From: Syncephalis plumigaleata | Lineage: Eukaryota; Zoopagomycota; Zoopagomycetes; Zoopagales; Piptocephalidaceae | Assembly (NCBI GenBank): GCA_025201365.1 | Contig: JAIXMF010000238.1 | Location: forward strand, 1-21,466 | DNA: 21,466 bases | Direction of reading: 5' to 3' | Part shown: positions 3,049-21,466 of the stretch, one piece after another | Numbering within the stretch: position 1 is the first letter of the stretch | How the letters are laid out: each line of letters opens with the position of its first letter | Notes under the pieces: model-generated | The model's database searches: none | Seen by the model: only the letters and a program-made list of their open reading frames with translations | What the model was told of the DNA's origin: nothing | Position numbers and translations under genes: made by a program

Positions 3049-4395
3049 ATGGGGAACTACCATGCTCGATCCAGACGAAATACTCTTGATTGTAATGACT
3101 CGAGCCAGACATCAAGCGGTATTCAAGCCCATCGACTACAAAAGTCATCGAGCGATTCTGGACCCATTGTCTCGACATTACGACGACATGGTAGCCTTGA
3201 GCACTGGTATCGAAAACAGCCAACTAAATCAATGATGGTCAGGCATCGTTCGAATGGTAGTCTTATGACGCGACCTCGTGCCAATACGGCCAACAGTTTA
3301 ACAGAGGAAGAGGAGTATGATAACAATGGCGACAACAATGATGATGATGATGATAATGATGGTGAACGAACAAAACACATTACCACCACCTCCATTGTTC
3401 CGGTTAGACATTTATCCACGTCTAGTAAAAGATCCTCGCAGATTATACTACCGGATGAGGAAAAACTGGATTTACTCAATCGTATGCATGCAACGCTGCG
3501 ATACGTTATCGGCACTCAACATCTCGTTCCATCTACCACTCGGCCTAAATCAGTACTTGATGTGGCTACAGGTGCAGGTACTTGGTTGATGGTAAGTGGA
3601 ATAAGTGGACTGATAATTATAAAGTAATAATGACAATAATGATATCTAATCCCGATGTAGGAAGTAGCGATGGACTGGCCCGAGGCACAATGTATAGGCA
3701 TTGACAAGTCGCCTTTATTCCCGACCGCGGTCATGCCAAAGAACTGCAGGTTCTATCTACTCGATATTCTTGAAGGTAAGATAGCATTCCTTTCGGTTTC
3801 ATGCATTGTGCATGCTGTTACTAATAGTTGAATAGAACGCGCGCTAAGTACTCTGGAGCAGTCATTTGATTTCGTTTATCTACGCTATTTAGCCACTAGT
3901 ATACCCGCTGATCTATGGCCGCAATTATGCAAGGATTTATACGAGGTCACCTCCACCAAGAAGGGAATGTTGCAAATGACGGGATTCGCCTTCAAGTTGG
4001 AATCGGTAGGACCGGCCGGCGAGGAGATTAATCGTTTGTTGCGCATGTTCGCCGAACACAACGGCCTTGACATCGACATAAGTGAGCGGTTGACCGATCG
4101 TCTGACTGATGCGGGGTTCGTTGACGTCAATCATATTACCATTTCATTACCATGCGGTGACTGGGGCGGACACGTTGGTCGACTATTCCTAAGCGATGCC
4201 ATGGCTCAGCTTAACACGCTGAAACCATTGCTATTAGACATGATGCTAACGGATGATACGACATTTGCGCAATTGATCGTGGATTGGCAGAATGAGATCG
4301 ATACAAGTCGATGCTACGGCAATGTCTACATTCATACGGCGAAACGTCGTGAAAAACCAATGTATAATCAAATGTATGAATGTACGAATGAATGA
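3049..4395 (+). CDS. Methyltransferase A: predicted N-myristoylated class I SAM-dependent methyltransferase
   Basis: The exons are 3049-3591, 3661-3775 and 3836-4395, giving 405 residues. The introns (69 and 60 nt) are phase 0 and phase 1, at the family positions. The N-terminus MGNYHARSRR has Gly2, Ala6 and Arg7 plus a basic cluster, which fits the N-myristoylation consensus, although Ala6 is weaker than the Ser/Thr of its paralogs. Residues 11-130 are disordered and Ser/Arg-rich, with an acidic Asp/Asn run at about 86-105. The methyltransferase domain starts near 137: motif I is VLDVATGAGTW at 169-179, the acidic residue after strand 2 is D196 (IGID), and the CGDWGG signature is at 326-331. 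The usual R-P-G-G turn is replaced by TSTKKG, so this paralog has diverged there. The substrate is unknown. It is the first gene of the array, and the intron after E/L-D-R seen in B, D and E is absent. Confidence 0.88.
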
Positions 4396-4876
4396 ATGAA
4401 CAAAAATGATAATTTGCATATTAACGACATGACACTATTATAGTTTGTCTGTTTATAATTATTTTATTATATTATATTAATAAAGAACTATTCTATACTA
4501 TTAAATAGATCGTTAAATAATAGATATATATTTGTAGATCGAAATAACGATGTCTTACTATTTGCGAGCGGAATTGCAACTTTTCTAGGTTTCAGTATTT
4601 ATTTTGATGAATGATGATTGATCGATCGCGGTTTCACAGGCGTGGTGATATCATCGCACCGGCAAAACCTTGGAGGGTGAAACATTTTACGATTCAGTTA
4701 CTTATTGCTTGCTTACGTGCTTACGTATCAATATCGTTGTTATTCACCAATAGTATACCCTTTTCCGTCGTTGTTCATATACATTCTACTTGTAGTATAC
4801 CCCCGTGCATTAGTTCTTTCACCTTCATTCTATTCCCATTTATTCATTAAAGGGCATACCAGCTATTCGCATCAAT
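4396..4876. other. Spacer between methyltransferases A and B
   Basis: This 481-nt AT-rich spacer holds the A 3' UTR and the B promoter and leader. An ATG frame of 79 codons at 4611-4850 ends 27 nt before the B start. It has no recognisable domain and could be an upstream ORF if the leader extends that far. No other feature is visible. Confidence 0.55.
4479..4484 (+). terminator. Candidate polyadenylation signal of gene A
   Basis: AATAAA lies 84 nt after the A stop codon in an AT-rich stretch. The spacing fits a fungal 3' UTR. Confidence 0.5.
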
Positions 4877-6582
4877 ATGGGCTCACCTCATTCCAAAGCA
4901 CGCCGACAGAGTCAAGCATCGGTACGTAGTGCGCCAACCGACTATCGTCATCGTCGTCCATCCGCGGGTAGTGTCGTGGAATTGACTCAGACACGATGCT
5001 ATTCAGATACTGGCATGAAGCCTATAGCCAGTGTCTCCCCTAAATACAAGAATAAAAGACGGTCACGACGTTACTCTGGTTTGGAGTCACGTATCAGTTT
5101 GCAGGAATGGTTGGGCGATCATTACAACGACGTTTACGACACGCCACCCATCAAGTCGTCGTCCTACAAAGAGATGACGAGTAACAAATCGACGACGAAT
5201 CGAGGTAGATTACATGACTTTTTCTCAAAGAAATCTCGAAAATCGAGAATGCTAGCGGAATCACCATGTAGTGATAGTGATATCGACAATGACAATGGTG
5301 ACAACGGTGGCAGTTGCAATTGTGACAATAATGCCAATGACAATGGTGACAATGATGATAAATGCTCGGTACGAACAGCAAAGTCTAGGCGAAAGCTTTC
5401 CTGGGGATCACTAATACGCACGTCAGATAATGCATCCGAGAATACGAATGAATCATCGTCATCATCAATAAGATCATCGTCATCATCATCATCATCGAAG
5501 ACTGAACCGAAAAAAGCAGTGTCCACGATAGTCAAGAATGGCCTACTTGTCCCAAGGTGTGAAGAGGAGATAGCACGGTAAGCAAGCAAAACAAGTAATA
5601 CACTTGGCTAATTCAGATAAAAACAATCGCTTTTATCTTCTTAACAAAAGCGAGAATAACAAGCATTACATTCTTAATCAAGTATTCGGTCGTAATTATT
5701 TCATACCACTTGATAATGTTAAACGAGTATTGGACGTCAATACAGGCACAGGCATTTGGGTTCTAGTAAGTGGTGATGATGATGGCGATACAATAATATG
5801 CTAGCAAGGATATGAATGAATGATTAACGCGCGTATACGTGCTTGTCAATGATACTCATAGGAAATGGCTACTGCCTGTCCCAACACATTATTCCTTGGT
5901 ATAGATACGGAAAAGTGTTTTCCACAATGTACAATGCCACCTAATTGTCGATTTGAATGTATGAATATATTTCACGGTAAGTGTATAACATAGCGAGAGA
6001 AAGAGAAAGAGAAAGAGGCACAAGGTATAATTAACGCATTCCATTGTTGTTGTTGCTATTGCTAAAGGGCTTGATTGTGCATCGGAACTATTCGATTATG
6101 TTCATATTCGTTTACAACTCGCCTTTATCCCTACTGATGCGTGGCAGCAAGTACTACTAGAGATGTATCGTATCACTAGTCCCGGTGGATGGATTGAGGT
6201 AGTCGAATGGGATGCATTCTATCGACAAGGCGGTCCAATTAGCAATCGAATGACCGATGTAGCACGACAATTATTGAGTATGCGTGCTTGCGATCCAAGT
6301 AAAGTGCCACGACTTGATGGAAGAATCACAGACGCTGGTTACACGCAAGTGACCACACGCGCTTATGATATACCATTAGGACGTTGGGGTGGCAGTATCG
6401 GACTGCAGATGATGCTTGACATCGAGTCAATAGTGCGTATTGTCGCACCGAATGCCATTAAGGCGGGGCTATTCGGTCCGGATGAGGTGCCAACATTGCT
6501 CAATGAATGGGAAAAGGAAATGGACGTGACTAAACCATTTGTAAGATATTATGTTTATACGGGACAACGTCCTAATAAATAA
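4877..6582 (+). CDS. Methyltransferase B: predicted N-myristoylated class I SAM-dependent methyltransferase
   Basis: The exons are 4877-5577, 5651-5765, 5862-5976 and 6068-6582, giving 481 residues. The first acceptor was chosen by comparison with the paralogs: joining at 5651 keeps the frame and puts His five residues after the Arg, as in D, E and F. The nearer CAG at 5614-5616 would create a stop. MGSPHSKARR is a strong N-myristoylation match (Gly2, Ser6, Lys7) followed by basic residues. Residues 10-230 are disordered: Arg/Ser-rich, an Asn/Asp-rich run at about 134-161, and a Ser run at about 192-208. In the catalytic domain, motif I is VLDVNTGTGIW at 260-270, D287 is in LGID, SPGG is at 348-351 and PLGRWGG is at 413-419. 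All family motifs are intact, so this is probably an active enzyme of unknown substrate. Two of its three acceptors are AAG rather than pyrimidine-AG. Confidence 0.88.
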
Positions 6583-6717
6583 GTTTATTACATAATGCAT
6601 CTTGGTCAGGTCAGCTCTATTAATCTCATCTCGTTTACACACGATTGTAAGCATGAGCAAGTCATTTCTCGGTAATAACGTTAGTATAATATAAATACAA
6701 AAGTGCATGTGTATATC

Positions 6718-6723
6718 AATAAA
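6718..6723 (+). terminator. Candidate polyadenylation signal of gene B
   Basis: AATAAA lies 136 nt after the B stop. Another AATAAA overlaps the stop itself and is too early for normal use. Confidence 0.4.
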
Positions 6724-7450
6724 GTTTATTAAATCCACTGAACGTCATTGATGTGTATAGAAATGTACAATAAGTGTACGATAGATCATTAATTCAGTTA
6801 ATAGTAGCAAATGAATCAGTTAATTATTCAAGGTCATGCAAGTTTATACGTTGAATGAAATGGTTGTAACAGTAATAACAATGGGTACTTCTTTAGAATA
6901 GATAACGGTTTTTTTTCCGCTATTGTTGACATTATCGCTTCACTTCCTCTTACTCAGCCATCCACACGTGTGTGTGTGTTTATCCTTTTTTCTTCTTAAA
7001 TAATTTGCCATCATTAAAATAATAACATAACATTGCAATATCATCATAGCTATGCAATATAAGGCGTGACCGCTCACCATTGGCAAACCACCTTGACCCA
7101 TTCTTTCTTCTTGATACTAAAAATAGCCAAAGGATTGCACATTAGAGGGGAAAAGGGAGCATGGCAATTTGTATTCACATACCCTGAAGAATAAAGAAAG
7201 ATAACGAGATGCCGGTGCCGATGCTGATGTTGCAATGTCTGCAAAGTTGGAAGCATTGTCATTGCAATTATTCGTCTTGTTCTAGTGACATTTGTATTGT
7301 CAATAATGCTTCTATTTGCCATGAGTAATACCGAGTTTATTATTGTAGTGTTTTAGCAATTATAATTGAATTCTAACATGCGGCAGATCAAACATACTCC
7401 CTTTTTTATTTTGACGCACAATGTATGTACTTGTTGATGCATACATACAT

Positions 7451-7482
7451 AGAGAAAGAAAGAGAAAGAGAGAGAGAGAGAG
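7451..7482. repeat. GA-rich purine tract
   Basis: This is a run of AG and AAAG units on the + strand. It is the only long purine tract in a spacer that is otherwise pyrimidine-rich on this strand. Confidence 0.8.
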
Positions 7483-7639
7483 GCGATGATAATGGTGTTT
7501 AGGGTGAACAAGTGTGCGCGGACGACGCGTCCCTCACTCATTCGCTCGTTCATTCACTTGTTCACTCGCACACTCATCTGTACATTGTTTCACAGCGCAT
7601 CCTTGATCTCCTAACCACGAACCAGTGTGACACCTTGTT

Positions 7640-7834
7640 CATTGTTGTTGTTGTTGCTGTTGTTGTCACGATTGTTACGGTTTTTTGTTATGCTTATTGT
7701 TGCTGTTGCATCCACCACCATCATCTACCACTGCTATTAGTACTATTGCTACTACTGCTATCGCATTTGTTATTGTTATTGGCATTGTTATTGTTCTTAT
7801 TACTATTGTTGTTGTTTGTTGTTGTTGTTGTTGT
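7640..7834. repeat. TTG/TTA trinucleotide-rich region
   Basis: TTG repeats are perfect at about 7640-7667 and 7804-7834, with degenerate TTG, TTA, CTA and CTG units between. The reading frames across it are repeat artefacts. Confidence 0.7.
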
Positions 7835-8235
7835 GATGGTGATCCATGTTACAACAAGTACTTTTTAATAAGCTCATACCCTGTGATAAAAAGTATGAGG
7901 ATTGTGTAATCTACCACAGGTAAACATTATTTGTCGGTATTTTGGTCCATATCTCTCTCTCTCTCTTGTCCACCTGAACTGCATCGAGCATCGTCGCGTC
8001 CATTGCTTGTTGGACGGGAACGATACTTTAAACTGCGTATACCCTTTCTTCTTCTATTATCATCATCATCTTTTATCTTTGCATCGCTGCTTCCAAGTGC
8101 TCGCACCAGGTCAATAGCGCTCTTTTTTCCTGCATCTTGTCGGGGATCCCTTTAGCATGACATTGAACTTTTGACATTACCTATTTCTCTATCTCATTTA
8201 ATAGCTTACCTTCACTTTCCTATCGCTTGACAACC

Positions 8236-8308
8236 GACAACAACAACATCATCATCACTATTATCATCACTATTATCATCGCTATTATTATCATTATCAT
8301 CATCATCG
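8236..8308. repeat. CAA/ATC/ATT trinucleotide repeats
   Basis: A short CAA run passes into ATC and ATT units with little interruption. This is intergenic simple sequence upstream of gene C. Confidence 0.75.
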
Positions 8309-8347
8309 CATATTGATCGGTCGGTTGAGTCGCATTATTCGCTCTTA

Positions 8348-8368
8348 CTCTCTCTCTCTCTCTCTCTC
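8348..8368. repeat. (CT)n microsatellite
   Basis: About ten CT units lie within a longer pyrimidine-rich stretch upstream of gene C. Confidence 0.8.
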
Positions 8369-8520
8369 CCCTTCTCTCTCGCTAGTTACTCGGCCATTTC
8401 GTTGCCAGCCTTTATTGTCTATTTGGATACATGTCAACCGGATTGCTACTTATCCTAGGATAGTTACTTTTTTGCTTGTTTTTGTTTCTTTCTTTCTTCT
8501 TCTTTCTTTACTACTATTGC

Positions 8521-8550
8521 CACTACTACTACTACTACTATTACTACTAT
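8521..8550. repeat. (ACT)n microsatellite
   Basis: ACT/ATT units form a near-perfect trinucleotide run in the leader region of gene C. Confidence 0.75.
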
Positions 8551-8660
8551 TGCTGCTTATTTCATTCTTCATACTCAGCAATTAAACATTGCTCTTGTAG
8601 TTCATTATCGTCTCTACTCCTTTTTTCATATATCATCTTGTAATTTAATATACACACGCG

Positions 8661-8681
8661 CACTCACTCACTCACTCACTC
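8661..8681. repeat. (CACT)n microsatellite
   Basis: Five tandem CACT units lie about 175 nt before the gene C start codon. Confidence 0.75.
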
Positions 8682-8755
8682 ATACATATTTAATATCTAA
8701 CATCTAATATCTATATCGATTATTTAGTATACTACTGCTACTAGTTAACCTATTT

Positions 8756-8829
8756 GTAAGCCATAATATCATTATCACTTTTATCTATTATTCATTATTT
8801 GTTCCCATTTGTTCTCTTCTTTATTGCAG
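8756..8829 (+). other. Predicted 5'-UTR intron of gene C
   Basis: GTAAGC at 8756 and a pyrimidine-rich acceptor ending TTATTGCAG at 8829 bound 74 nt, a typical intron length here. The gene C ATG lies 27 nt after the acceptor. Both ends match the consensus of the coding introns in the window. This is inferred from sequence only. Confidence 0.5.
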
Positions 8830-8855
8830 TCAACTTTTTAATCCTCCTTGTCGTC

Positions 8856-10249
8856 ATGGGTAATACCACGTCTAAGCGTCATCCTATCAATCATAATAAT
8901 GTGGTGTTTAATATCAAAAAGGGAACAGCGTTACCATTGTCAGACTGTCATTCAACGTGTACACCTAGCAACAGCACGTCTACTACGCATCCATGCGCCC
9001 AGCCAACGACAGCATTTGTACAAACTATCACCGATGCATTATCAAATCGTTTACCTCGAAAGAAGAGTAATCGATCTTTACGAAGCGTGAATAGCGAGAA
9101 TAGCAGTTGCAATTATGACTTGACCGATCCATTGGGACGTCATTTCTGGTGGATCGCCCATAAGCAATGTAATTCCGGCATCCCACTCTCGCTTTCAACG
9201 AGTAACCTCCTGCTGACTGACTCGACGAGCACGACACGATTCTACGCGTTGATGAATGGTCTACGACGTAATAATAATAAAAAGATTCGACGCAATGCAT
9301 CGTCTTCAACATTGAACTCGATTACTATAGCAATGATGGCTGCTGCGAAGCGAGAGGTCGACGATGTCGATGTCAACATGGATACATTGCTAGACAAGTG
9401 GCCCATCACCGAGGAGGGACGACCATTGACGAAATCGCTATGGAAGCATCAGCTTTATCTATTTGTACTAGGTGACTTGTTTATCGCTCCCGTGCTTAAT
9501 TTGGCAAACGTACTTGATGTGGGGACAAGCGCGGGTGATTGGTCGCTTGCCGTGGCACGCGAGTTCCCTCATTGTCAGGTGGTTGGCATCGACTCGCAGG
9601 GCAACAACTATCCACACCAGCATTCCTGGCCTAATAATTGTCAATTCAAACATATTGACATCAGTCATGGTGAGTGAATCGATTGCGTAACTTTTCTTTA
9701 CATATACCGTTTCGATTAATGCAATGCAAAAAAATAGGCCTGACCATTGACGCTAATCGATTCGACTTGATCCACTGGCGACATCACTTGACGAGTATTC
9801 CATCGGCGCACTGGCATTACTGCTTCTCGGAGTTGTTTCGTTGCACTCGCCCTGGCGGTTGGATACAGGTCACCGAGTCTGATGATCGTCATCTTGAATG
9901 CGGCCCGATAGCTGGTGCGATTAACATGCTCGTTCATCGTTTTGCTCTGGTGAACGACGTTGATCTCGAGTTGCTCCGCCATCTGGATGATGTGTTACGA
10001 GCGGCTGGATTTGTCAACGTCGAACGAACGATGATATCATTGCCTATCGGCAGGTGGGGTGGTCAAGTGGGCGAGCTACTTTTACAGGACAACATCGAGA
10101 AGCTCCAAACCCATCGAAAGGCCATGCTTGAGGAGGGCATCACCTCCGAGGAGGAGATAGACTGGCTCTTGGCGGGCTACGAACGTGAAGCGAACATGAC
10201 CCAGGCATACTACAATGTTTGTATCTATACGGCACAACGTCCAAAATAG
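8856..10249 (+). CDS. Methyltransferase C: predicted N-myristoylated class I SAM-dependent methyltransferase
   Basis: The exons are 8856-9669 and 9738-10249 (one 68-nt phase-1 intron), giving 441 residues. The start is the first in-frame ATG; the open frame runs upstream as hydrophobic codons, but without an ATG. MGNTTSKRH is a textbook N-myristoylation context (Gly2, Ser6, Lys7). Residues 10-180 are a variable Ser/Thr/Asn-rich region with basic patches at about 65-75 and 137-147. In the catalytic domain, motif I is VLDVGTSAGDW at 219-229, D246 is in VGID, RPGG is near 309-312 and GRWGG is at 376-380. Motif I deviates from G-x-G-x-G because Ser replaces the middle Gly, so SAM binding may be weaker. 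The two upstream family introns are absent and only the phase-1 intron before the G-L codons remains. The substrate is unknown. Confidence 0.88.
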
Positions 10250-10258
10250 CGGGCAGCT

Positions 10259-10300
10259 TATATATATATATATGTATATATATGCGTATATATATGTGCA
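10259..10300. repeat. (TA)n tract after gene C
   Basis: TATATA runs are broken by GTA, GCG and GTGC. The tract starts about 10 nt after the C stop, so it is probably in the 3' UTR. Confidence 0.75.
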
Positions 10301-10388
10301 TAGTTGTACCAGTGTATTTAATTGATTCTAAAGCGCTGGTCGCTGTAATATTTGGTTCTATACGAGCGTATTCACTTTAATATTATTC

Positions 10389-10394
10389 AATAAA
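10389..10394 (+). terminator. Candidate polyadenylation signal of gene C
   Basis: AATAAA lies 140 nt after the C stop; a second copy is at 10514-10519. Confidence 0.45.
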
Positions 10395-11270
10395 CACAGT
10401 AAAACCATTATACCAATGTACGTGTCAAACCATGCCAACTAAACAATAGTCCAATGATTTTAGCAAACATCTATCATTGAATATACTTTAGTTCGTACTC
10501 TTGTATACTAGGCAATAAAAGTAGCAAGTCATTGTAACCGTATCACCTAGTATTTCTCCTTCTATATCTTTTCTCTCTTTTCATGTGGGTGTGTACCACA
10601 TTCATGTTTTTGGCAAATCTATTCAGTTTTATTGTACATATGAAATCTTACTAATCGGTCAAGTATTCATGTTTACCGTGTAGCCAAAACAGGGAGATAT
10701 GTGCATTTCACATTGCATACGAACAAGTCGTGTCATTGTTTCCAGCAAATATGCTGGGAATCCATAGTTTACAGATGTCACGCCTTGACCATTGACGATG
10801 TGACTATATGGGTTTATCCGACCATTATTACTATCACTATCATTAAATAGAATGGAGCTTACCAGCTGGGTATACGTACAACCAAGCGGTAAAGCATCAA
10901 TGTCATTCCGCTAATCAGATTGCTTCTAATGCAATATCTGCATTGCATATCAAGCATGCTTGCTCCAAGGCGATAACCTGCTGCACCACCGTCCTTATTC
11001 TTTTTTCGATTCTTGTCCCTCCCCTTTTTTCTCCTCTCTTTTACTTACGTGCTCGTTCACTATTTGTGCCGAAACCTTGACACATTATCACTGTAAGCGT
11101 CCACCTACTCCTATCTGGTCTGTACGTTTCTCCGGACGTGTAGCACCGCCGGTGTGACTAATATTGATTCAAGGGATAAGAAATTGCGTTGCATTGATTT
11201 CAAAGATATATAGTTTTCTTCTGACAGCAAGAGCTCCAATATCCATTGAATTACACCTTACAAAAGTCAA

Positions 11271-11320
11271 CAATCAATCAATCAATCAATCGTCATCATC
11301 ATCATCATCGTCATCAATCA
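11271..11320. repeat. (CAAT)n followed by (TCA)n
   Basis: About five CAAT units run directly into TCA/TCG units, roughly 120 nt before the D start codon. Confidence 0.75.
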
Positions 11321-11441
11321 TCGCTTGTTCGTGTGTATGTCGTGAGTGTGAATAGTATTACATCAAAGGTGGCCTAACTACTCCTCGGTGGATATCCGTT
11401 CAAATTATCATTACCATTATCACTGTCGAATTATCGATAAT

Positions 11442-12634
11442 ATGGGTAATCATCAAAGCAAAAAACGTCGACCTTATAGAGGTAGTGACACGCAAAGTGA
11501 ACGTATGTATATGATGAAAAATGAGTATGTAAATGAACAAGTTCTAAGAGGCAGTTGCACGAATGTCACAAAATGAAATAGGATCAGTGAGCAATGAGCG
11601 ACGTGAAAATGGATACATTCTCGAAATGAGCATAGAGGAGATTGACCGGTAGGTGTTTTGTCACGAGCGAACCATCTAAGCTAGCGTTAAAACCAACGAA
11701 TATCACACATACGCATACGCAACAATAGACTGAATCATATCCACAATGTGTTCGTCGACATTAGTGGCACATTACACCACGTTTCACTTGACAATCCACG
11801 ACACGTAGTTGATATCGGTAGTGGTACCGGTATATGGATGAAGGTAGGAATGAAGCAGTTGTACAAAGTGTTGTCTTCACTCAGCATACGTAACACACAC
11901 ATGTATATGTAGAATATGGCCATGAAGTTTCCTGACACTCAGTTTCACGGCGTTGACTTGTTCGTCGACGTATGCCAAGAGCACATCCTACCCAATTGTA
12001 AATACATCCAGCATAATGTATTCAATGGTAATGTAGGGCGATGCCTAGCATGTACACCGAGCTAATCCTCCGTATAGGCCTGCCATTTGGCGAGCAGTCT
12101 ATCGACTATGTGCATCAGCAATTGTTCAATATCGTGGTGCGTACCGAACAATGGCCGCAACTATGTGCCGATTATTATCGCGTGCTTGCACCGGGCGGTC
12201 AAGTTGAAATAGCGGAGATCGATGGCACTCAGTTGTCCAAGGGTCCTGCCGCTCAGCGTATGGAGAACTGGATAATGCAGTCATTGAAGCAGCGTCAACT
12301 AGACTTGGGCGACATCCATCGATTGCCGCAACTACTTGCCGACACGGGATTCATCGGGATCGAACATCGAATCATTAGTATACCCAGTGGATGTACCGCA
12401 GGAAAGTACGGCGAGATGGCATGGCTCGGTTGGAATAGCTTTGCGCGTATTATGCTGCCGCTACTGCTAGATGACGGCGTTGCCGCCTGGGAGTTCGAGC
12501 AAACGATGCTGGAATGGCAGCGTGAAGTCAAGGAACTGCCGAGTATCACTCAACTTCATGTCTACTCAGCTCGTCGTCCTGGTAGCGCGACGACACCTTC
12601 TCAAACCGCGTATACCGACACAGATCGATGGTAG
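11442..12634 (+). CDS. Methyltransferase D: short predicted N-myristoylated class I SAM-dependent methyltransferase
   Basis: The model is 11442-11502, 11582-11648, 11729-11843, 11913-12027 and 12078-12634, giving 304 residues, the smallest paralog. The first intron (79 nt, GTATGT...AAATAG, phase 1) is inferred: the MG frame stops at 11574-11576, while the next open frame carries the family segment before E-E-I-D-R. MGNHQSKKRRPYR is a very strong N-myristoylation plus polybasic match (Gly2, Ser6, Lys7). The linker to the catalytic domain is only about 25 residues. Motif I is VVDIGSGTGIW at 69-79, the acidic residue is in HGVD, and APGG is at 157-160. The G-x-W-G-G signature is replaced by SGCTAGKYG near 223-231. 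Exons 3 and 4 are 115 nt each, exactly as in B. The substrate is unknown. The first intron is the weakest part of the model; a frameshift is the alternative. Confidence 0.82.
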
Positions 12635-15002
12635 TACGGGTCGATGAATCCATCCAACTCTAATACAATAATACGAGATGCTTGTTCACCTCTTATTAGA
12701 CAAGCACTCTGCTATAAATTATTCTACAACCATTGTAACCGGGGATCATCACATGACGATGAGTGTACGCCCTATGTACGCACACACATACGATATGGCC
12801 TTTTCATTCCATTCGTAACACACACATATATATGTATTTATACGTATAAATTGTCAATTTGTATAGAATAGCATGTAATGTGTAAATACACACACACACA
12901 CACACACACACTAAGAGCGACGAACACATGCCTAACCATGTTTGGAGTATTATAATTATAAAACACAATATTGACAACCGAGCGAATAACGAATGCTTTA
13001 ATCGCCAGAGTACGGTCAGATATACGAGCCATATGTATCCCCTTCATGTTCACCTATTCTCTATGGTACGAGAATGTTTTAAATTATCAAATGAGCATCA
13101 TGCGTGTAATCTATACTCTAATACGGATTGCTAGATGTATCATTCCTGACGTGGTATAATGGGGCATATCAGTTACACCTAGCACTACCACGGTTATCTG
13201 GTCATTGTAGACCGCGTGTTTTTGCCATCAAAACAAGCAATTGGCCTTTCCGCTTCCTCATTTCTTTCTATCGAATCGGTAAATTGTACAACACCGTATC
13301 TACACGTTCCTATCTGGTCATTGATGGTATGGCAGGGAGAACAAGCGCGTGCTATCACGAAGTTCAATGTGTAGATAATTAGCAGATGACAGCGATCATC
13401 GGTCTGCTCGATTCCGATATCATTTGGCACTTGTCGATTTAAGCCTGCATGTAACGTAAGACGATCCATTAATGTTGTATTCAACTATTGCCGTTGTAAT
13501 AAGATTATTGCGTAATATTGTAATTTATCAGCTAGGCAAGATTAACTATTTATAGACTATAGCATTCCTCACTATCATCTATATGTCATTGCCTTTCTTT
13601 CTTGCTTGCTTATTTGTTATAACTAAATGACTGATTGCATCGTCATTGACATTAGTGTCTGTAGCATCATTCTAGGCTAATTTGCATCATTGAAGCACCA
13701 TGTTTCATGCTAGCATTCTACTTTCCTTTTTCCACGATTAGTTTCACGAAGTTCACGCGTTACCTTTGTCGTATAGTAGACGGCATTCGCTATTCGTTCG
13801 CCTTTTCTCGTCTCCTAACTGTACCCCTCAATGAAGCAATACCTACCGCCTAATTTCTCGCTTTCTCTCTCTCGTCCTTTCCCCGCTTTCTTTATGCTTA
13901 TCTTGAGTGTCATCGGGAACATGACTGGTGGATTCAACTTTTTGCGCGTCCCATAAAGAATACATGCGGATTCGGCACAATATGCACGTGGTGACGCGAT
14001 TCAGCGGTTGTTCCACGGCACTCTTATTTGTTGCCTAATTTTAAGCAATCACCACTAAACAGAGGGTGCCTGCGTTGTACACGGTCAGAGAAGAATGAGC
14101 TCATCTCCTCATCAGAACAGTTCTATACATCATTCTATTGTCTGGATAGAACTTGCCGCTGTTTCAGTATCAAAGCACCGCGGCCTGTTCTTCCGTGAGC
14201 GTCGTTCTATTTAACCAACGCCTAACGTGCTCGCCTATTATTCGTATTATTCATCCGGTTATGCATCCCACTCAATTAAACTAACGACCTTTTATTCTGT
14301 TTTACTGATATTATTTCATACGATTTACGAATTAAAAGCATTAGCAAGCTAAATGACAAATTAGCAAATCTGGACCTAATAATAATATCGCTATTACTTT
14401 AATCGAATTACAATTTTGACTCATTACCATTACAATACGCGCACGCAAGTAAGTATACTCGCTAATAATCGTAAGAGTAAAATGTGTTCTGTGCTTCATT
14501 CTTGTTTCTTCTTTTGCTCGTTAATCCGTTATAAGCATTATTATATACTTGACTGCACGTAGACTGCTATCCCTTTTTTTGTTCTGCTTTTGACATCATC
14601 TAAAGTAGATAGTGATGTGTGCTCCATTTGCAAATTGACATGTTGTAATACATATTGTCATTTCAGTGGTTGTTCATTATTTCCATCATATGATATTAAT
14701 TCTTTATTATATATATTTCTTTGACAATTATATTATAGTCTCCTGGTTTGTTACGCAAGTGATATTATCACAATCCGACGACAGAGTTATCAGCATTACT
14801 CCCTCCTACTAGCTGACCGACTACTCGACGAATTAAACAGTATCGCATACTATTATCGGTGTAGTGCTTTTGGAAGCCAGCGACTAACATAAAATCAATC
14901 CAATTGATAACAGTAACTAAACGTCAAGGAAAAGATTATAACGCTTTTAAACTTGCAATAGCGTATCCATCACGTTTACTTTATTCCGCATTCTGTTTTG
15001 TC
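12635..15002. other. Long spacer between methyltransferases D and E
   Basis: This stretch is about 2.4 kb with no gene I can support. It contains a CA microsatellite (12888-12911), a TC-rich stretch near 13857-13890, and otherwise non-repetitive AT-rich DNA. The open frames (for example a 96-codon frame on the minus strand at 13194-13484) show no recognisable domain. The frame of gene E stays open upstream of its first ATG to about 14865, so a missed upstream exon is possible. Confidence 0.5.
12888..12911. repeat. (CA)n microsatellite
   Basis: This is a perfect CA run of about 12 units in the spacer after gene D. Confidence 0.9.
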
Positions 15003-17490
15003 ATGCCAATGCCCGATCCTTTTTGGTCTTTATCACCGTCGTCGTTGTCGTCGTTGTCGTCGTCCGCATTACCGTCATCCTCCCCGCCAGTTTCAAGTCC
15101 ATTGGCCAATGCATCCTATAGACATTTAAGCGCAACCACCATATCATCCACCACTACCACTATCACCACCGCGAGAACCGTGAAATATCGCAGTTCATAC
15201 GCGACACTATTAAGGAAACCCAAGTCTATTAAGATAGTGCATCCTACTCTACGCGAGCAAGATGATTCACCGTCAAATGCTCGCCAAGCGAAATCATCAC
15301 GTCGACTGTCAGCAATGGCGACCGAGAAGTTGCGTCGTATCGGTAGAAGCATGCGTTTCTGGCGTCATTGCTTCTTTATCGCTGATCTCCCGACAAGTAG
15401 AAGCAGTGGTAGTAGTAGCAATACGCCTGCCATGAGAAGATGTCCCATGCAAACGCAACCCGCTTACAAGACCACCATCGTATCCAAGCCCACTTCATCC
15501 ATGCAAAGTACCATTCATGCCAAATACTCGAGCTACGAGAGCTGGGCGTCCGATCAGCCTTTATATCTTCAGGATGATTATACCACGGATGTTTCCGTAT
15601 TCTACGATTGGTACGCGAGTCCAAACACCGAGAAAGACCAGTTTACCGCGTCATTCTACGTCGACGATAGTATCGCCTATTCCTGCGATAATTTGTCCAT
15701 GCCATCTCATAGAATCTCCCGCACCTACTCGGGCACCTGTCTTTCCAATAAGAATCATAACCATACAAATCGCCTTCTAGACGCGCAGCCATCATTACCG
15801 CCATCACCATTACCGCCATCATCATTACCATTACCATTATCATTATCATCGTCATCGTCATCGTCATCGTCATCATTATATAGTAGAAATCGTCACATGT
15901 CAGCGGGAGCTGGCGACAGGAGTAGGCAATCATCACGTCTGCCTCCATTGCCTCCGTCGCCGAAAACGGCCGATTGCTTTCCTGGTCCATCATCGAGTAT
16001 CACGCAAGTAACATCCGGTCCATCATCGTTGCCATTATCGATGGTGTCACCACATGCGGTTATGCAATCTCCGGTGGTGGTCAAGCCACTCGAGTCGCGA
16101 TCGGCATCGTCTAGAATGTCCCGTAAAGAGTCGTCTCATACGTTGAAATCAACTCGAAATAGCAGTCAGCATTCTCCACTTGACATCAATAGAGAGTTCA
16201 CCCTAGCATCGCCGGCTACCATATCATCCGCCAGTAATTTCAACGAGTTTGTGCAATCTTCTCTAACTGCAGGCGGAAATAAACTGCGCAAACGTTCGAC
16301 TACTCAAATGAGTATTCATCCTCAGCATCGTGGTATATCCACGCCCATATTGCCTGAAACGCCGCGTCGCTCAACCAACACTGCACCTTGTAGTCGTAAT
16401 GTAAGCATCGACTTGGTCATGCTTAGTCCGAGTGATACGATCGCTTCCCTCCCCGTTAGTCGGCATGGAAGTATTAATAGTGCAGCCAGTGCTTGTTCAT
16501 CAAGACGCAAAAGTGTCGACACGGCACGATCAACGCCCTGCAGTTCTAAGCGTAGATTCCGGAACAAATCCGCATTACCAGTTATTACGATTAAAGATCA
16601 ACATGAATTAGACCGGTACGTGTTATTATTATTGCCATTTATTTACTATAATATTTACTCTCTTTACATTAGGCAAGACCAATTGCACTATTTGTTGCGC
16701 ACTTTTCTGCACACTAATCATTTAGCATTTATCAATACTACCGGCAACATACTTGACATCATGACTGGTTCAGGCGTGTGGGCACTAGAAATGGCTTCGG
16801 AATATCCCGCCTGTCAGGTTCATGGTGTGGATTTACTGCCGGCACAACCCTCGCACGTCTTACCGCCCAACTGCCACTTTCGCTTAACCATTAGTATGAC
16901 CGGTAAGTTTGCCCATCTACCTATGTAAGCAAACTAATTATTTGCTATTTTATTATCATTATTATCAATCATCACTCCTAGCCTTACCTTATCAGAATGA
17001 TGAGTTCGAGTATCTACACCATCGATTCGTTGCTCTACATGTCCCGCGGGAAATACAACCGGCCTATTGGCATGAATGCTACCGTGTATGTAAGCACGGT
17101 GGTATTATCGAAGTGCAGGAGCGTAACATGGTCATGCGTAATGTGGGCGAGATAGGTCAGCAGATTAACATTTGGCTCGGTAGTATTCTTATACATCAGA
17201 ATGGTATTCCGCTTGCCGTTCAAGAGATCGCGAACGATATCAAATGCGCAGGCTTCCACATACTAGACACGCAAGAATTACCGGTGGCCGTCGGACAATG
17301 GGCAGGTAACATGGGTGCGGCAGGCTTTGCGGAAATTCGTAGCTTTCTCGAGGAACATCGCGAATATCTTGTGCGTCTATTTACACTGGAAGACGGCGAG
17401 TTTGACCATTTACTAGCCGACTGGCAGACAGAGATCAACACTTATCGTACTGTCTGGACATTGCAAGTGATTATCGCACGTAAAATATAA
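15003..17490 (+). CDS. Methyltransferase E: class I SAM-dependent methyltransferase with a very long Ser/Pro-rich N-terminal region
   Basis: The exons are 15003-16615, 16673-16902 and 16982-17490, giving 783 residues from the first in-frame ATG. The first 537 residues are low complexity: Ser, Pro and Thr runs, basic patches (KSSRR, RRIGRSMR) and a long poly-Ser stretch. No domain is visible. The catalytic domain starts near 534 (HELDR): motif I is ILDIMTGSGVW at 564-574, D591 is in HGVD, KHGG at 652-655 replaces R-P-G-G, and GQWAGNMG is at 719-726. Introns are phase 2 (57 nt) and phase 1 (79 nt), at family positions; the middle intron is lost. The 57-nt intron is a multiple of three without a stop, so retention would insert 19 residues. 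Unlike its paralogs it has no Met-Gly start; a missed upstream exon is possible. The catalytic part is certain, the true N-terminus is not. Confidence 0.8.
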
Positions 17491-17730
17491 GCTATTCATT
17501 AGAGTATGCGATACTCCAGAGTAGTCATACCATTGCCAATTTTAAATATAATCAGTCTATCAAGTCTGTTTATCGTTTTGCTTAACTCGTACTATCATTT
17601 CTATCATTATCTTCATTGTTTATTCATTAAATGTAACATCGAATCATGATGTGAAACATTGTTTATTTACTGTTATACTACATGCGTGTAATGTTTTCCT
17701 TTAACTTGGTCGATTGGCAAAGCTATATTT

Positions 17731-17754
17731 ATACATACATACATACATACATAC
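17731..17754. repeat. (ATAC)n microsatellite
   Basis: Six perfect tetranucleotide units lie about 240 nt after the gene E stop. Confidence 0.85.
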
Positions 17755-17770
17755 AGGACATTCCTGTTTG

Positions 17771-17776
17771 AATAAA
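17771..17776 (+). terminator. Candidate polyadenylation signal of gene E
   Basis: AATAAA lies 280 nt after the E stop, just after the ATAC repeat. It is the first clear consensus match downstream. Confidence 0.35.
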
Positions 17777-18363
17777 TAGAATAATCCATGACAACAAGTT
17801 TACAATGGAGGTATACATACACACGGACATGGACACGGACACACGATTGTTACCAATTGATCATATGCTTGGTATTAGTCATATGTCAGCCTTTGGCTGA
17901 ATGAATTGCCGCGGACAAGCATTAACAAAGCGTAACACTCAATTCGAATAATGAATACATTCACGAATATTCTATGCATTTTCATTGTTCTCAAAGCTTG
18001 ATGAATCTACAAAATGAATAATGAAGAATAAAGAAAGGTGATGGTACGCATCTAGACCGGTCCATGGACGTGCACGATCGTTACTAGTGGCTCAATTCCC
18101 CCCTCCCCCCCATTCACTCATTTGCATGCCTCGACTGTAATGCAACGGATGTTTCTATAGGAAACTTTAACACTGTCGTGCCAATCATTCTGCAAAAAAG
18201 GACTGAGTAAACCATGCATTCTTGTAAGTGATGGCGAGTGCATATCGCGTGTCACTACCATAATCACCACACGCACACGTGTGTATATGTACATGCCTAT
18301 CATTGGCTATCTGTACATGTGGGTTGGACAATGTTTCGTAATGTCCCTCCATTTATGCAAAAT

Positions 18364-18389
18364 GAGAGAGGAGAGAGGAGAGAGGAGGA
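18364..18389. repeat. GAGAG-type purine repeat
   Basis: Tandem GAGAGAG units form a short purine run in the E-F spacer. Confidence 0.7.
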
Positions 18390-19304
18390 TAGGTGGACAG
18401 GTCAAGCGACAAGTAAACCGGATAAATTCGCATGCATCAAACGCTGCACTGGCATGACAATGAAGATACGACGATTACCTTCCATAGTTAACAGTTCAAC
18501 TTTACTATCCATTCAGTAGCAACTGCAATATCATCAATATCATTGATTACATTCATTTCCTTACGTACTGCGCGCTCTTTCCTTTCTATTCTTTTTTAAC
18601 CATACTCTCATCCTGCGATATTCATCATCTCCATCATCTTCTTCATCTTCATCAGTATTACTAGCCATCTGTATTGCTGGCACATTACTACATACATACC
18701 AATTTCTCCCATCGTTTATTAGTATACTCGCATACTAGTGTATACATCATTAATGTGCTACCGTGCTCATATGCATTGATTGTTCACGCACATACACTAT
18801 CGTTCACAGTTGCTCGGCAAATTAAGTGACTAGCTTCTAAGCAATACAAATGAGAACCTTGAGACGTCGCTAACTGCATCGGCGCCTTGTATTTGCATAT
18901 CCCTTCTACTCATAGCGGTACACGATAGCAGACGTATAATCATTGATCATCTATAAAAGTGTTTCCTACGCTATCATCACATCTCGCTTTCTCCTTCATC
19001 ATTCTCGGATTGTACTGCCAGGTTTATGTATCATCTTGTTTCTTCTTTCGTCAGTTGCTAATTGTGCGTGTGCAATCACAACTAGGTTGACTAATTATCA
19101 TATTTTTGCAATTAACTATTATTTCCATTTATTGTCATTTATTACCAAGTTACAACATCGGAGTTTCATTACTCATACTGACTTTTTTCTCTTGTCCCTT
19201 GCCTTTTCCTTGTCCTTCCTTGCCTATTGTGAGCGATAAATATCAGTCCTTCTTTTGTTTAATAACCAAAAGTGCTAGCACTTTATTATCCTCTACCTTT
19301 CTTC

Positions 19305-19342
19305 ACTACGACTACGACGACAACGACAACGACAACGACTAC
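19305..19342. repeat. ACTACG/ACGACA repeat in the leader of gene F
   Basis: Tandem ACGACA hexamers are flanked by ACTACG units and lie 20-57 nt before the F start codon. They keep a frame open upstream of the ATG, but that frame has no in-frame ATG before 19362. Confidence 0.75.
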
Positions 19343-19361
19343 TATTCCACCTCATTCGAAC

Positions 19362-20448
19362 ATGGGCCAGTCCAACACCAAACATCCTCGAATCCGACGA
19401 CGTGGATCGGAGTTATCACCCTCGACGGATAAATCGATTTATTCCTCTACAAGCATGGATTCATTCGACAAAAGTAAAAACAATCTACTTAGTGTTCGTA
19501 TAGTGAATCCATTTGCAATCGATTGTAAACGCAAGAAGAGTCTGTCGTCTACAAGTGATCAGAGCGGATATAGCTGCTACTTACTGCCGACGAATATACA
19601 CGAGAGTGAGCGACTAAACAAGCAGCATGAATTCCTAAGGATGGGACTAAAGACCAACCATTTTGCCCCGATCCATCATCCCAGGAAGGTACTTGATGTC
19701 GGCACGGGAACCGCAATCTGGATCAAGGACATGGCGAGACTATGGCCATCATCGAAATTCTACGCCATGGATTTGATACATCCTGGATCGCAAGATGTCA
19801 AGTTTAAGTTTGCATTTGCCGACTACTCACCGGTAAGTATAATGGTTAATAAGTGTTTGTAGTAGATCTACACGCTACTATTCCAAACGTATTTATACCG
19901 ACACGATGGCTGATCTATTACTCCTCAGGTCTACCGTATTCTAGTAAGACGTTCGACTATGTACATCAACGGTTTCTATCCTCGGCCATCCCTACAATAA
20001 ATGGATGTCGGTATTGGAGGAACTCTATCGAGTAACACGTCCTGGTGGCTATCTCGAAATCGTCGACACAAACGTGAAACTCTCCACGGTAGGACCTATA
20101 ACCGGTCAGATATTCGCACTCATTACCAACATGATGTCACTGGGCGGTATCGATTTGGAACTAGTCGGCAATGAGCTCGGGCTATGGCTAACGGAGGTTG
20201 GCTTCGAGCTAGTTGAGAAACGTATCGGTAAAGTGCCCGTCGGTGAATGGGGAGGCAAGACAGGCCAGATGTGCTTTAACTCTTGGTGCCCTGCTCATAC
20301 GTTCGCTCAAGATAAACTACTCGCCTCGAATTCATTGCGTTCCTGGGACTTTGAACTACTAATGAGCGAATGGCAGGCCGAGATCGAGGAAATCAATACG
20401 AGTTGCGAAATGGTAATCTACGTGGCTAGACGTCCACTCAAAGCATAG
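19362..20448 (+). CDS. Methyltransferase F: predicted N-myristoylated class I methyltransferase with an apparent frameshift
   Basis: Exon 1 runs from 19362 to 19836 (or 19832) and exon 2 from 19929 to 20448. MGQSNTKHPRIRRR fits N-myristoylation (Gly2, Thr6, Lys7) with a basic cluster. A Ser-rich linker of about 70 residues leads to the catalytic domain: motif I is VLDVGTGTAIW at 110-120 (Ala in place of the last Gly), D137 is in YAMD, and then FDYVHQRF, RPGG, VGEWGGKTG and EWQAEI follow. Two frame problems exist. The strong donor GTAAGT at 19833 leaves the wrong phase, while GTATAA four bases later restores the family phase 1. Then only 8 nt separate the conserved Pro (19991-19993) from the conserved Trp (20002-20004), where paralogs A, B and C have 9, so the frame shifts by one base. 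Everything downstream stays open to the stop. This is either a recent pseudogene or an assembly indel. Only the phase-1 family intron is kept. Confidence 0.75.
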
Positions 20449-20792: not shown

Positions 20793-21466
20793 TTAACGCT
20801 TCAGATAAGCTAATAGTTCTAGTCGTTCTACTCGATCAACTTCAGCTTTCCGTGCAATAGCTGCCTGTGATATATTGCTTCCTATCTAATAGACACATAG
20901 CATTCATGTATGCATATTAGATTAACAACCTGTAGACTATACTCAAAACAACTAATCCCTACCTCCAAGTCTGATGGCGCGGATGATGGTCGCTCTTTCG
21001 CACCGAGTCCAAGTTGTCTTGGTCGCATACGAGCCTTTATCGGATGTCGTCGCCCTTGTAATTCAACGCCCAATCCTTGGTTGTCATCCCAGCCTGCCCG
21101 CTGAAGCATACGATAACCGATATTCGTCTAGAATCAGGAAGATAGCAATAAATACGTTTGCACTACTACGTATATGATGAAGAATCTAGCTTACCTCATT
21201 CAAAACGATAGGGTCAGGTATGTCAGGATAATCACTACGCGATGCCAAGTGTCCAATACTTTGCTGATGTCGCTCTACACTCTCCCTCGATAGTGCTACT
21301 TGACATACGCGACACCATAGTTCGTTGTCTAGTTGATCTGCCAAGTCATTTAAGACAATATGCTATCGTTGTATCTACTATTATCACTTACCTGCCGTTC
21401 CCGAGCTACTTTGTCCAGTGCTTTCGTTTGATTTGTGCTTATTCAGTTCGCTTGCACTTGTTAATA
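20793..21466 (-). CDS. Zinc-finger plus G-patch domain protein (3' part, GPANK1-like)
   Basis: The minus-strand exons are >21466-21392, 21337-21195, 21127-20963 and 20885-20793; the introns are 54, 67 and 77 nt, GT-AG, with consistent phases. The gene runs off the window, so its start is missing. The visible part has a Ser/Asn-rich segment, then a C2H2 finger of the U1/matrin type (C-R-V-C, 11 residues, H, 5 residues, H). A G-patch follows: GYRMLQRAGWDDNQGLG, then GRRHPIKARMRPRQLGLG. A charged helix-like C-terminus ends the protein. G-patch proteins commonly bind RNA or activate DEAH helicases. The finger-then-G-patch order matches the C-terminal half of GPANK1-type proteins; whether ankyrin repeats precede it cannot be seen. 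It converges on gene F and is unrelated to the methyltransferase array. Confidence 0.88.

What the first reader, a model, noticed from the sequence alone, without database searches (positions are those of the whole stretch)
3049..19400. Predicted N-myristoylation plus polybasic anchor on five of six methyltransferases
A, B, C, D and F all begin Met-Gly. Residue 6 is Ser in B, C and D, Thr in F and Ala in A; residue 7 is Lys in four and Arg in A. Basic clusters follow (RSRR, KARR, KRH, KKRRPYR, KHPRIRRR). This matches the N-myristoyltransferase consensus and the myristate-plus-basic membrane switch known from Src and MARCKS. The rest of the N-terminal regions are unalignable, so conservation of only these first residues suggests selection. 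A methyltransferase family held at membranes by lipid would be unusual.
Basis: partly seen in the sequence, partly recalled or inferred. Interest (0 to 1): 0.75.

Follow-up and report, generated by a model that had tools for sequence, protein, structure and literature searches.

The report
Fungal methyltransferases with predicted lipid anchors
A large family of methyl-transferring enzymes in this fungus mostly begins with a short tag that cells use to attach a fatty acid and hold a protein at a membrane, which suggests that most of the family works on membranes; the attachment itself has not been tested in the laboratory.

Summary
Window genes A, B, C, D and F begin Met-Gly with Ser/Thr6 (Ala in A) and Lys/Arg7; E does not. 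Searching the same genome with the C-terminal exon of gene C, a query blind to N-termini, gave 56 matches, which I reduced by hand to 35 loci, a lower bound. I could read 31 starts; 26 are Met-Gly. Of those, 22 have Ser/Thr6 and 19 Lys/Arg7; residue 3 is only Asn, Gln, Ser or Ala. Catalytic exons of the 22 tag-bearing members in the tree have a median identity of 26%, so the tag outlasts most other similarity. Gly2 uses four codons and Ser6 both serine codon families. Outside loci fetched by a tag pattern, the strict motif occurs at 20 of 8,367 distinct ATGs, and all 20 are starts of this family. An N-myristoyltransferase gene is present. Best reading: N-myristoylation is ancestral to the family, with some losses (E among them). 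The basic patch is common, not universal. A MARCKS-like switch, the substrate and orthologs in other fungi are untested.

The parts
3049..4395 (+). Gene A, exons 3049-3591, 3661-3775, 3836-4395; N-terminus MGNYHARSRR, class I methyltransferase domain
   Evidence: complete open model; first in-frame ATG; family alignments A1/A2
4877..6582 (+). Gene B, exons 4877-5577, 5651-5765, 5862-5976, 6068-6582; N-terminus MGSPHSKARR
   Evidence: complete open model; rank-1 start of a gene finder without Gly2 preference (trained on A-E)
8856..10249 (+). Gene C, exons 8856-9669, 9738-10249; N-terminus MGNTTSKRHP
   Evidence: complete open model; rank-1 start
11442..12634 (+). Gene D, exons 11442-11502, 11582-11648, 11729-11843, 11913-12027, 12078-12634; N-terminus MGNHQSKKRRPYR, only about 36 residues before the domain
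   Evidence: complete open model; rank-1 start
15003..17490 (+). Gene E, exons 15003-16615, 16673-16902, 16982-17490; N-terminus MPMPDPFW, no Gly2
   Evidence: complete open model; no ATGGG between 13159 and 15003
19362..20448 (+). Gene F, first exon 19362-19832, C-terminal part to 20448; N-terminus MGQSNTKHPRIRRR; small disruptions between about 19832 and 20005 in this contig
   Evidence: a copy with an open C-terminal frame exists on contig C124
3049..3078 (+). A: predicted NMT recognition motif G2, A6, R7
4877..4906 (+). B: predicted NMT recognition motif G2, S6, K7 and basic run
8856..8885 (+). C: predicted NMT recognition motif G2, S6, K7
11442..11480 (+). D: predicted NMT recognition motif G2, S6, K7 and KKRRPYR
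19362..19403 (+). F: predicted NMT recognition motif G2, T6, K7 and RIRRR

Best explanation
Genes A-F belong to a large, old family of class I SAM-dependent methyltransferases in this fungus, and the ancestral N-terminus of the family is an N-myristoylation signal. Proposed mechanism: the initiator Met is removed; the fungus's N-myristoyltransferase puts C14 on Gly2, guided by the small or polar residue 3, Ser/Thr6 and Lys/Arg7; the lipid, helped in many members by nearby Lys/Arg, binds acidic inner-leaflet membrane. A flexible linker, often long and Ser-rich, then tethers the methyltransferase domain to that surface, where it methylates membrane-bound or membrane-near targets. Members such as E that lack Gly2 would be soluble. 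Shown here: the conserved sequence pattern and its position specificity, the NMT gene, the methyltransferase domain. Inferred: the myristoylation itself, the membrane, the direction of loss, the substrate. Phosphorylation-controlled release is possible but only weakly hinted at.
For: Family search blind to N-termini: 56 matches, reduced by hand to 35 loci. 26 of 31 readable starts are Met-Gly, each the first in-frame Met; S/T6 22 of 26, K/R7 19 of 26; residue 3 N13 Q6 S5 A2. A start finder with no Gly preference (trained on my models of A-E) ranks a Met-Gly start first in 22 of 35 loci. A PROSITE-like NMT pattern (recalled) fits 23 of 26; shuffling residues 3-30 never reaches the observed S/T6 or K/R7 counts in 20,000 trials. 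Codon 2 is GGC9 GGT9 GGA5 GGG3, and Ser6 uses TCN (14) and AGY (6), so amino acids, not DNA, are conserved. Domain exons of 22 Met-Gly members: identity 17-44%, median 26%. Strict motif at 28 of 10,926 distinct ATGs of the fetched DNA: 20 family starts, 8 in loci fetched by an NMT-like pattern; without pattern-fetched loci 20 of 8,367, all family starts. MGNxxSK pattern: 16 places in the genome, reversed control 0; wrong spacing 3 against 3. NMT gene on C373 (PF02799, PF01233 above cut-off). Net charge of residues 2-25 averages +2.85 against +0.26 for later windows to residue 150 (26 proteins, Wilcoxon p = 0.0002).
Against: No direct evidence of lipid. Five of 31 readable starts lack Gly2 (E, L071, L061, L033, L018) and 4 of 35 loci could not be read (L022, L036, L027, L058). 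Three Met-Gly members have Pro6 (L034, L060, L070) and A has Ala6. The start finder put another start first in 12 of 35 loci and gave no model in 1; in 4 of the 26 Met-Gly members (L038, L060, L076, L040) it did not join the Met-Gly exon to the domain. Net charge of residues 2-25 is 0 or +1 in 8 of 26, and no member has Cys in residues 3-8, so a second membrane signal is not universal. The members without Gly2 in the tree (4 of the 5) are not significantly clustered on a weakly supported tree, so the direction of change is inferred.
Confidence: 0.8

Rival explanations
1. Gly2 is kept for a reason other than myristate: start-codon context (G at +4), N-acetylation of Gly, or an N-terminal degron.
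For: +4 G is a known start context in many eukaryotes (recalled); NatA can acetylate N-terminal Gly (table in PMC4692089, passage seen).
Against: A +4 G would allow Ala, Val, Asp or Glu as well; of 31 readable starts 26 have Gly, one Val, one Asp, none Ala or Glu. These models do not explain S/T6 with K/R7 or the restricted residue 3.
Confidence: 0.1
2. Beyond anchoring, a MARCKS/Src-like reversible switch: Ser/Thr phosphorylation in the basic patch releases the enzyme to the cytosol or nucleus.
For: RRxS/T-type sites in the first 60 residues in 10 of 26 proteins, shuffled mean 5.1, reached in 94 of 5000 shuffles (which replaces the partly unspliced count). Fungal precedent for a releasable membrane-held methyltransferase pair (VapA-VipC-VapB; passages of PMC4299510).
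Against: 16 of 26 have no such site and 8 of 26 have little net charge; the enrichment is modest and was looked for after seeing the sequences.
Confidence: 0.3
3. Chance or an artefact of choosing ATGs: the Met-Gly starts are not the true starts.
Against: Every one of the 26 is the first in-frame Met of its open frame; the strict motif occurs at no other ATG outside pattern-fetched loci (20 of 8,367).
Confidence: 0.03

Closest known systems
PRMT8 (vertebrate protein arginine methyltransferase 8)
   Same: A methyltransferase with an N-terminal myristoylation site that works together with basic residues in the first 20 amino acids to reach the plasma membrane (passages of PMC8621972).
   Different: One vertebrate protein of the PRMT family. 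Here there are at least 26 divergent fungal paralogs with a generic class I domain; the one scanned whole, L001, has no PRMT hit in Pfam.
VapA-VipC-VapB complex of Aspergillus nidulans
   Same: Fungal SAM-dependent methyltransferases held at the plasma membrane (passages of PMC4299510); the present genome also has velvet-domain genes.
   Different: There the tether is a separate FYVE zinc-finger protein, VapA; here each enzyme would carry its own lipid. Homology to VipC/VapB/LaeA was not tested (no such sequence at hand).
Src / MARCKS myristate-plus-basic membrane binding (recalled; MARCKS papers seen only as a search listing)
   Same: Gly2, and a nearby basic patch in 16 of 26 members.
   Different: Basic patch uneven, phosphorylation unproven, and the cargo is a methyltransferase.
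Phosphoethanolamine N-methyltransferases (AtPMT2 5wp5, PfPMT 3uj6) and a generic class I methyltransferase (3mgg)
   Same: 5wp5 is the best solved match both by sequence profile of window genes A-E (11 of 23 matched sequences are phosphoethanolamine methyltransferases) and by fold of L001.
   Different: 12-18% identity and TM-scores of 0.25-0.36 by query length (0.25-0.60 by target) in the fold rows of these entries; this is shared class I fold, not evidence of the same substrate.

Membership tests
N-myristoyltransferase substrates | Gly at residue 2 after the initiator Met | tested here: met
   5 of 6 window genes, 26 of 31 readable family starts; not met by E, L071, L061, L033, L018
N-myristoyltransferase substrates | Ser/Thr (or small residue) at 6, basic residue at 7, no charged or aromatic residue at 3 | tested here: met
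   22 of 26 S/T6, 19 of 26 K/R7, residue 3 only N/Q/S/A; PROSITE-like pattern (recalled) 23 of 26; G with S/T at the fifth place after Met removal as in a passage of PMC5492501. A passage of PMC4692089 says that a charged residue is favoured right after Gly, which no member has
N-myristoyltransferase substrates | NMT enzyme encoded by the organism | tested here: met
   PF02799 on C373, E 2.5e-33; exons hit PF02799 and PF01233 above cut-off
N-myristoyltransferase substrates | Myristate covalently on Gly2 | not testable with these tools
   needs labelling or mass spectrometry
Myristoyl-electrostatic switch proteins (MARCKS, Src) | Basic cluster near the lipid | tested here: inconclusive
   net +3 or more over residues 2-25 in 16 of 26; 0 or +1 in 8 of 26
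Myristoyl-electrostatic switch proteins (MARCKS, Src) | Phosphorylation in the basic cluster releases the protein | not testable with these tools
   only RRxS/T counts, 10 of 26
Class I SAM-dependent methyltransferases | Rossmann-type methyltransferase domain with motif I | tested here: met
   single-exon member L001 scores 54 bits on PF13649 (cut-off 27) and 40.8 on PF13489 (cut-off 27); window exons taken singly stay below cut-off but spliced A-E align through the motifs; fold search of L001
PRMT family | PRMT catalytic domain | tested here: not met
   no PRMT family among Pfam hits of L001 at E<=0.01; other members not scanned whole
LaeA-like / VipC-VapB methyltransferases | sequence membership in the LaeA-like clade | not tested
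   no fungal LaeA-like sequence at hand; only velvet genes were found

The most novel reading that the evidence does not exclude
This fungus has turned a whole expanded family of methyltransferases, about 26 or more enzymes, into a membrane-held signalling array: each enzyme is anchored by its own myristate and some could be released by phosphorylation. It would be a lipid-based counterpart of the VapA-tethered methyltransferases of Aspergillus and might form a large share of the fungus's myristoylated proteins.
Probability: 0.2. Interest if true: 0.8.

Novelty: new variant of a known kind. Interest (0 to 1): 0.6.

Why it matters
Enzymes of this type are usually thought of as soluble (general knowledge), and in Aspergillus a membrane-held pair needs a separate tether. 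If a whole fungal family carries its own lipid anchor, the likely substrates change (membrane or membrane-near), and NMT activity would control dozens of methyltransferases at once. About 0.5% of cellular proteins are estimated to be N-myristoylated (passage of PMC4692089), so 26 or more members would be a sizeable part of one fungus's set (inference). The pattern makes a clear, cheap test possible.

Tried and rejected
Considered and rejected: chance starts; start-codon context (Gly far above Ala, Val, Asp and Glu, four Gly codons used); a second acyl site (no Cys in residues 3-8 of the 26); an MG start hidden in an exon shortly upstream of E (no ATGGG between 13159 and 15003; a more distant exon is not excluded).

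Led nowhere: prokaryote and viral contig scans with gene C's exon matched patterns but no relative; plasmids, no match for E's exon. A pattern with wrong spacing, my typing error, serves only as a control. The fold of L001 is a generic class I domain with low confidence in its first half. Papers: N-myristoyl with methyltransferase and Mucoromycota gave one congress record, myristoylat with methyltransferase and Rhizopus none, the phrase 'myristoylated methyltransferase' none. That a lipid-anchored fungal methyltransferase family is not in print rests only, seen as listings (in only 8 of 11 and 8 of 22 papers listed), in an open-access library. From memory I recall Mucoromycota methyltransferases beginning MGNxxSK; no call supports it.

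Mended on checking: charges and RRxS/T counts read D or L017 past a predicted exon end; one search repeats them on the spliced models (16 rather than 17 of 26 with net +3 or more; RRxS/T still 10 of 26, but reached in 94 rather than 56 of 5000 shuffles). The start finder was trained on A-E while my model of D was still out of frame in its later exons.
Full report
What is there. The window is one contig (C155) of a 32.6 Mb genome that has velvet-domain and chitin-synthase genes, so it is a fungus (that velvet marks fungi is general knowledge); the species is not known. A second contig, C124, carries the same cluster at 98.3-99.2% identity over five pieces compared, most simply the other haplotype. 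Six tandem genes encode class I methyltransferases. Models of A-E are complete with GT-AG introns (A, B, C, E: introns 57-96 bases; D). Gene F in this contig has small disruptions between its first and last exon; the C124 copy has an open C-terminal frame.

The observation. A, B, C, D and F start Met-Gly as stated and E starts MPMP. Residue 6 is Ser in B, C, D, Thr in F, Ala in A; residue 7 is Lys in four and Arg in A. Beyond the first residues the N-terminal regions do not align, apart from one weak match of D to B (30% over 36 residues, E 0.23).

Is it more than chance? I searched the genome with the C-terminal exon of gene C, which cannot favour any N-terminus: 56 matches, reduced by hand to 35 loci by merging likely second haplotypes (same or nearly same score), split matches and the tandem domains on C373; the tool calls such counts lower bounds. 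Starts were read in two ways. A splice-aware finder without Gly preference, trained on my models of A-E, put a Met-Gly start first in 22 of 35 loci, another start first in 12, and gave no model in 1 (A-E, the other 30). Reading open frames by eye resolved 31 loci: 26 Met-Gly and 5 not (E, L071 MVNT, L061 MKFR, L033 MNVI, L018 MDSY); 4 stayed unread (L022, L036, L027, L058). All 26 are the first in-frame Met of their open frame. For L038, L060, L076 and L040 the join to the catalytic exons is by eye only.

The pattern. In the 26: residue 3 is N 13, Q 6, S 5, A 2; residue 6 is S 20, P 3, T 2, A 1; residue 7 is K 12, R 7, others 7. Positions 4, 5 and 8 are mixed. In 20,000 shuffles of residues 3-30 none reached the S/T6, K/R7 or joint count (22, 19, 17; shuffled means 6.4, 4.6, 1.2, and likewise). 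Codon 2 uses all four Gly codons and Ser6 uses both TCN and AGY, so the amino acids are conserved, not the DNA. As a specificity test I looked at the distinct ATGs (by following 60 bases) in the fetched DNA: 28 of 10,926 start the strict motif (G2, N/Q/S/A3, S/T6, K/R7); 20 are starts of this family (17 genes plus second copies) and 8 lie in loci that I had fetched with an NMT-like pattern. Leaving those loci out, 20 of 8,367 ATGs have the motif, and all are family starts. The pattern, MGNxxSK, hits 16 places in the genome against 0 for its reversed control; with wrong spacing it hit 3 against 3. No family domain was found in the seven stretches around its non-family hits (L062, L064-L069).

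Age of the trait. Domain exons of the 22 Met-Gly members in the tree have pairwise identities of 17-44%, median 26%. The tree has 31 rows, including two domains of L058; five members with partial exons (L070, L071, L072, L076, L077) were left out. It needs 3 changes between Met-Gly and not, for 22 against 4 labelled rows; the labels are not significantly clustered (77 of 500 shuffles as low for Met-Gly, 87 for the others) and support is weak (1 of 28 inner branches starred). The simplest reading is an ancestral Met-Gly with scattered losses: E, L061, and the neighbours L018 and L033.

How it would work. NMT is encoded in the genome. The known preference is Gly first with Ser/Thr at the fifth position after Met removal (passage of PMC5492501), which most members meet; another review says a charged residue is favoured directly after Gly (passage of PMC4692089), which none of the 26 has. 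Myristate alone binds weakly (general knowledge), so a second signal is expected. On spliced models net charge of residues 2-25 averages +2.85 against +0.26 for later windows up to residue 150 (26 proteins, Wilcoxon p = 0.0002), but only 16 of 26 reach +3 and 8 have 0 or +1; no member has Cys in residues 3-8. The structure model of the single-exon member L001 shows low confidence for most of the first 190 or so residues and confident domain parts from about residue 281, fitting a flexible linker in front of the enzyme; with 22 mostly partial sequences in its alignment, low confidence does not prove disorder.

What it acts on is open. Of 23 solved sequences matched by the profile of A-E, 11 are phosphoethanolamine N-methyltransferases; by fold the 50 rows shown are a mix of class I enzymes. 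The shared fold does not give the substrate.

Comparison. PRMT8 is a known N-myristoylated methyltransferase that combines myristate and basic residues (passages of PMC8621972), so the principle is known; the family and the scale differ. VapA-VipC-VapB shows that a fungus holds methyltransferases at the plasma membrane and releases them (passages of PMC4299510); there the tether is a separate protein. Whether the present family is LaeA-like was not tested.

Verdict.

Noticed in passing
window 1-2097: A plus-strand gene whose reading I recall as PAN2-like exonuclease; not searched.
   Followed up: no
window about 20800-21466, minus strand: Reading on the minus strand shows GYRMLQRAGWDDNQGLG, recalled as a G-patch motif.
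   Followed up: no
L058 (C373:816500-825000): Three methyltransferase domains of this family lie head to tail on one strand; the exon of the middle one reads on without a stop into a linker before the third, so this may be a multi-domain protein.
   Followed up: partly
L071 (C362:594100-596400): A family member starting MVNT with a degenerate SAM motif (ILNMDCGGTDTW), possibly a pseudo-enzyme that lost both Gly2 and motif I.
   Followed up: partly
L036 (C329:1279804-1283295): The open frame reads MLFTGNKSRRQ; GNKSRR resembles the family tag without a Met directly before its Gly.
   Followed up: no
L051, L053, L047, L046, L042, L043: Non-family places with MGNxxSK starts, e.g. MGNNPSKKSGN (long open frame) and MGNEESKRQK; candidates for other myristoylated proteins.
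   Followed up: partly
C362:590-605 kb, C329:1276-1282 kb, C223, C68, C279: The family forms further small clusters of 2 to 4 genes elsewhere in the genome.
   Followed up: no
window 19832-20005: Gene F carries small disruptions in this contig, while the C124 copy has an open C-terminal frame; assembly error or a damaged allele.
   Followed up: partly
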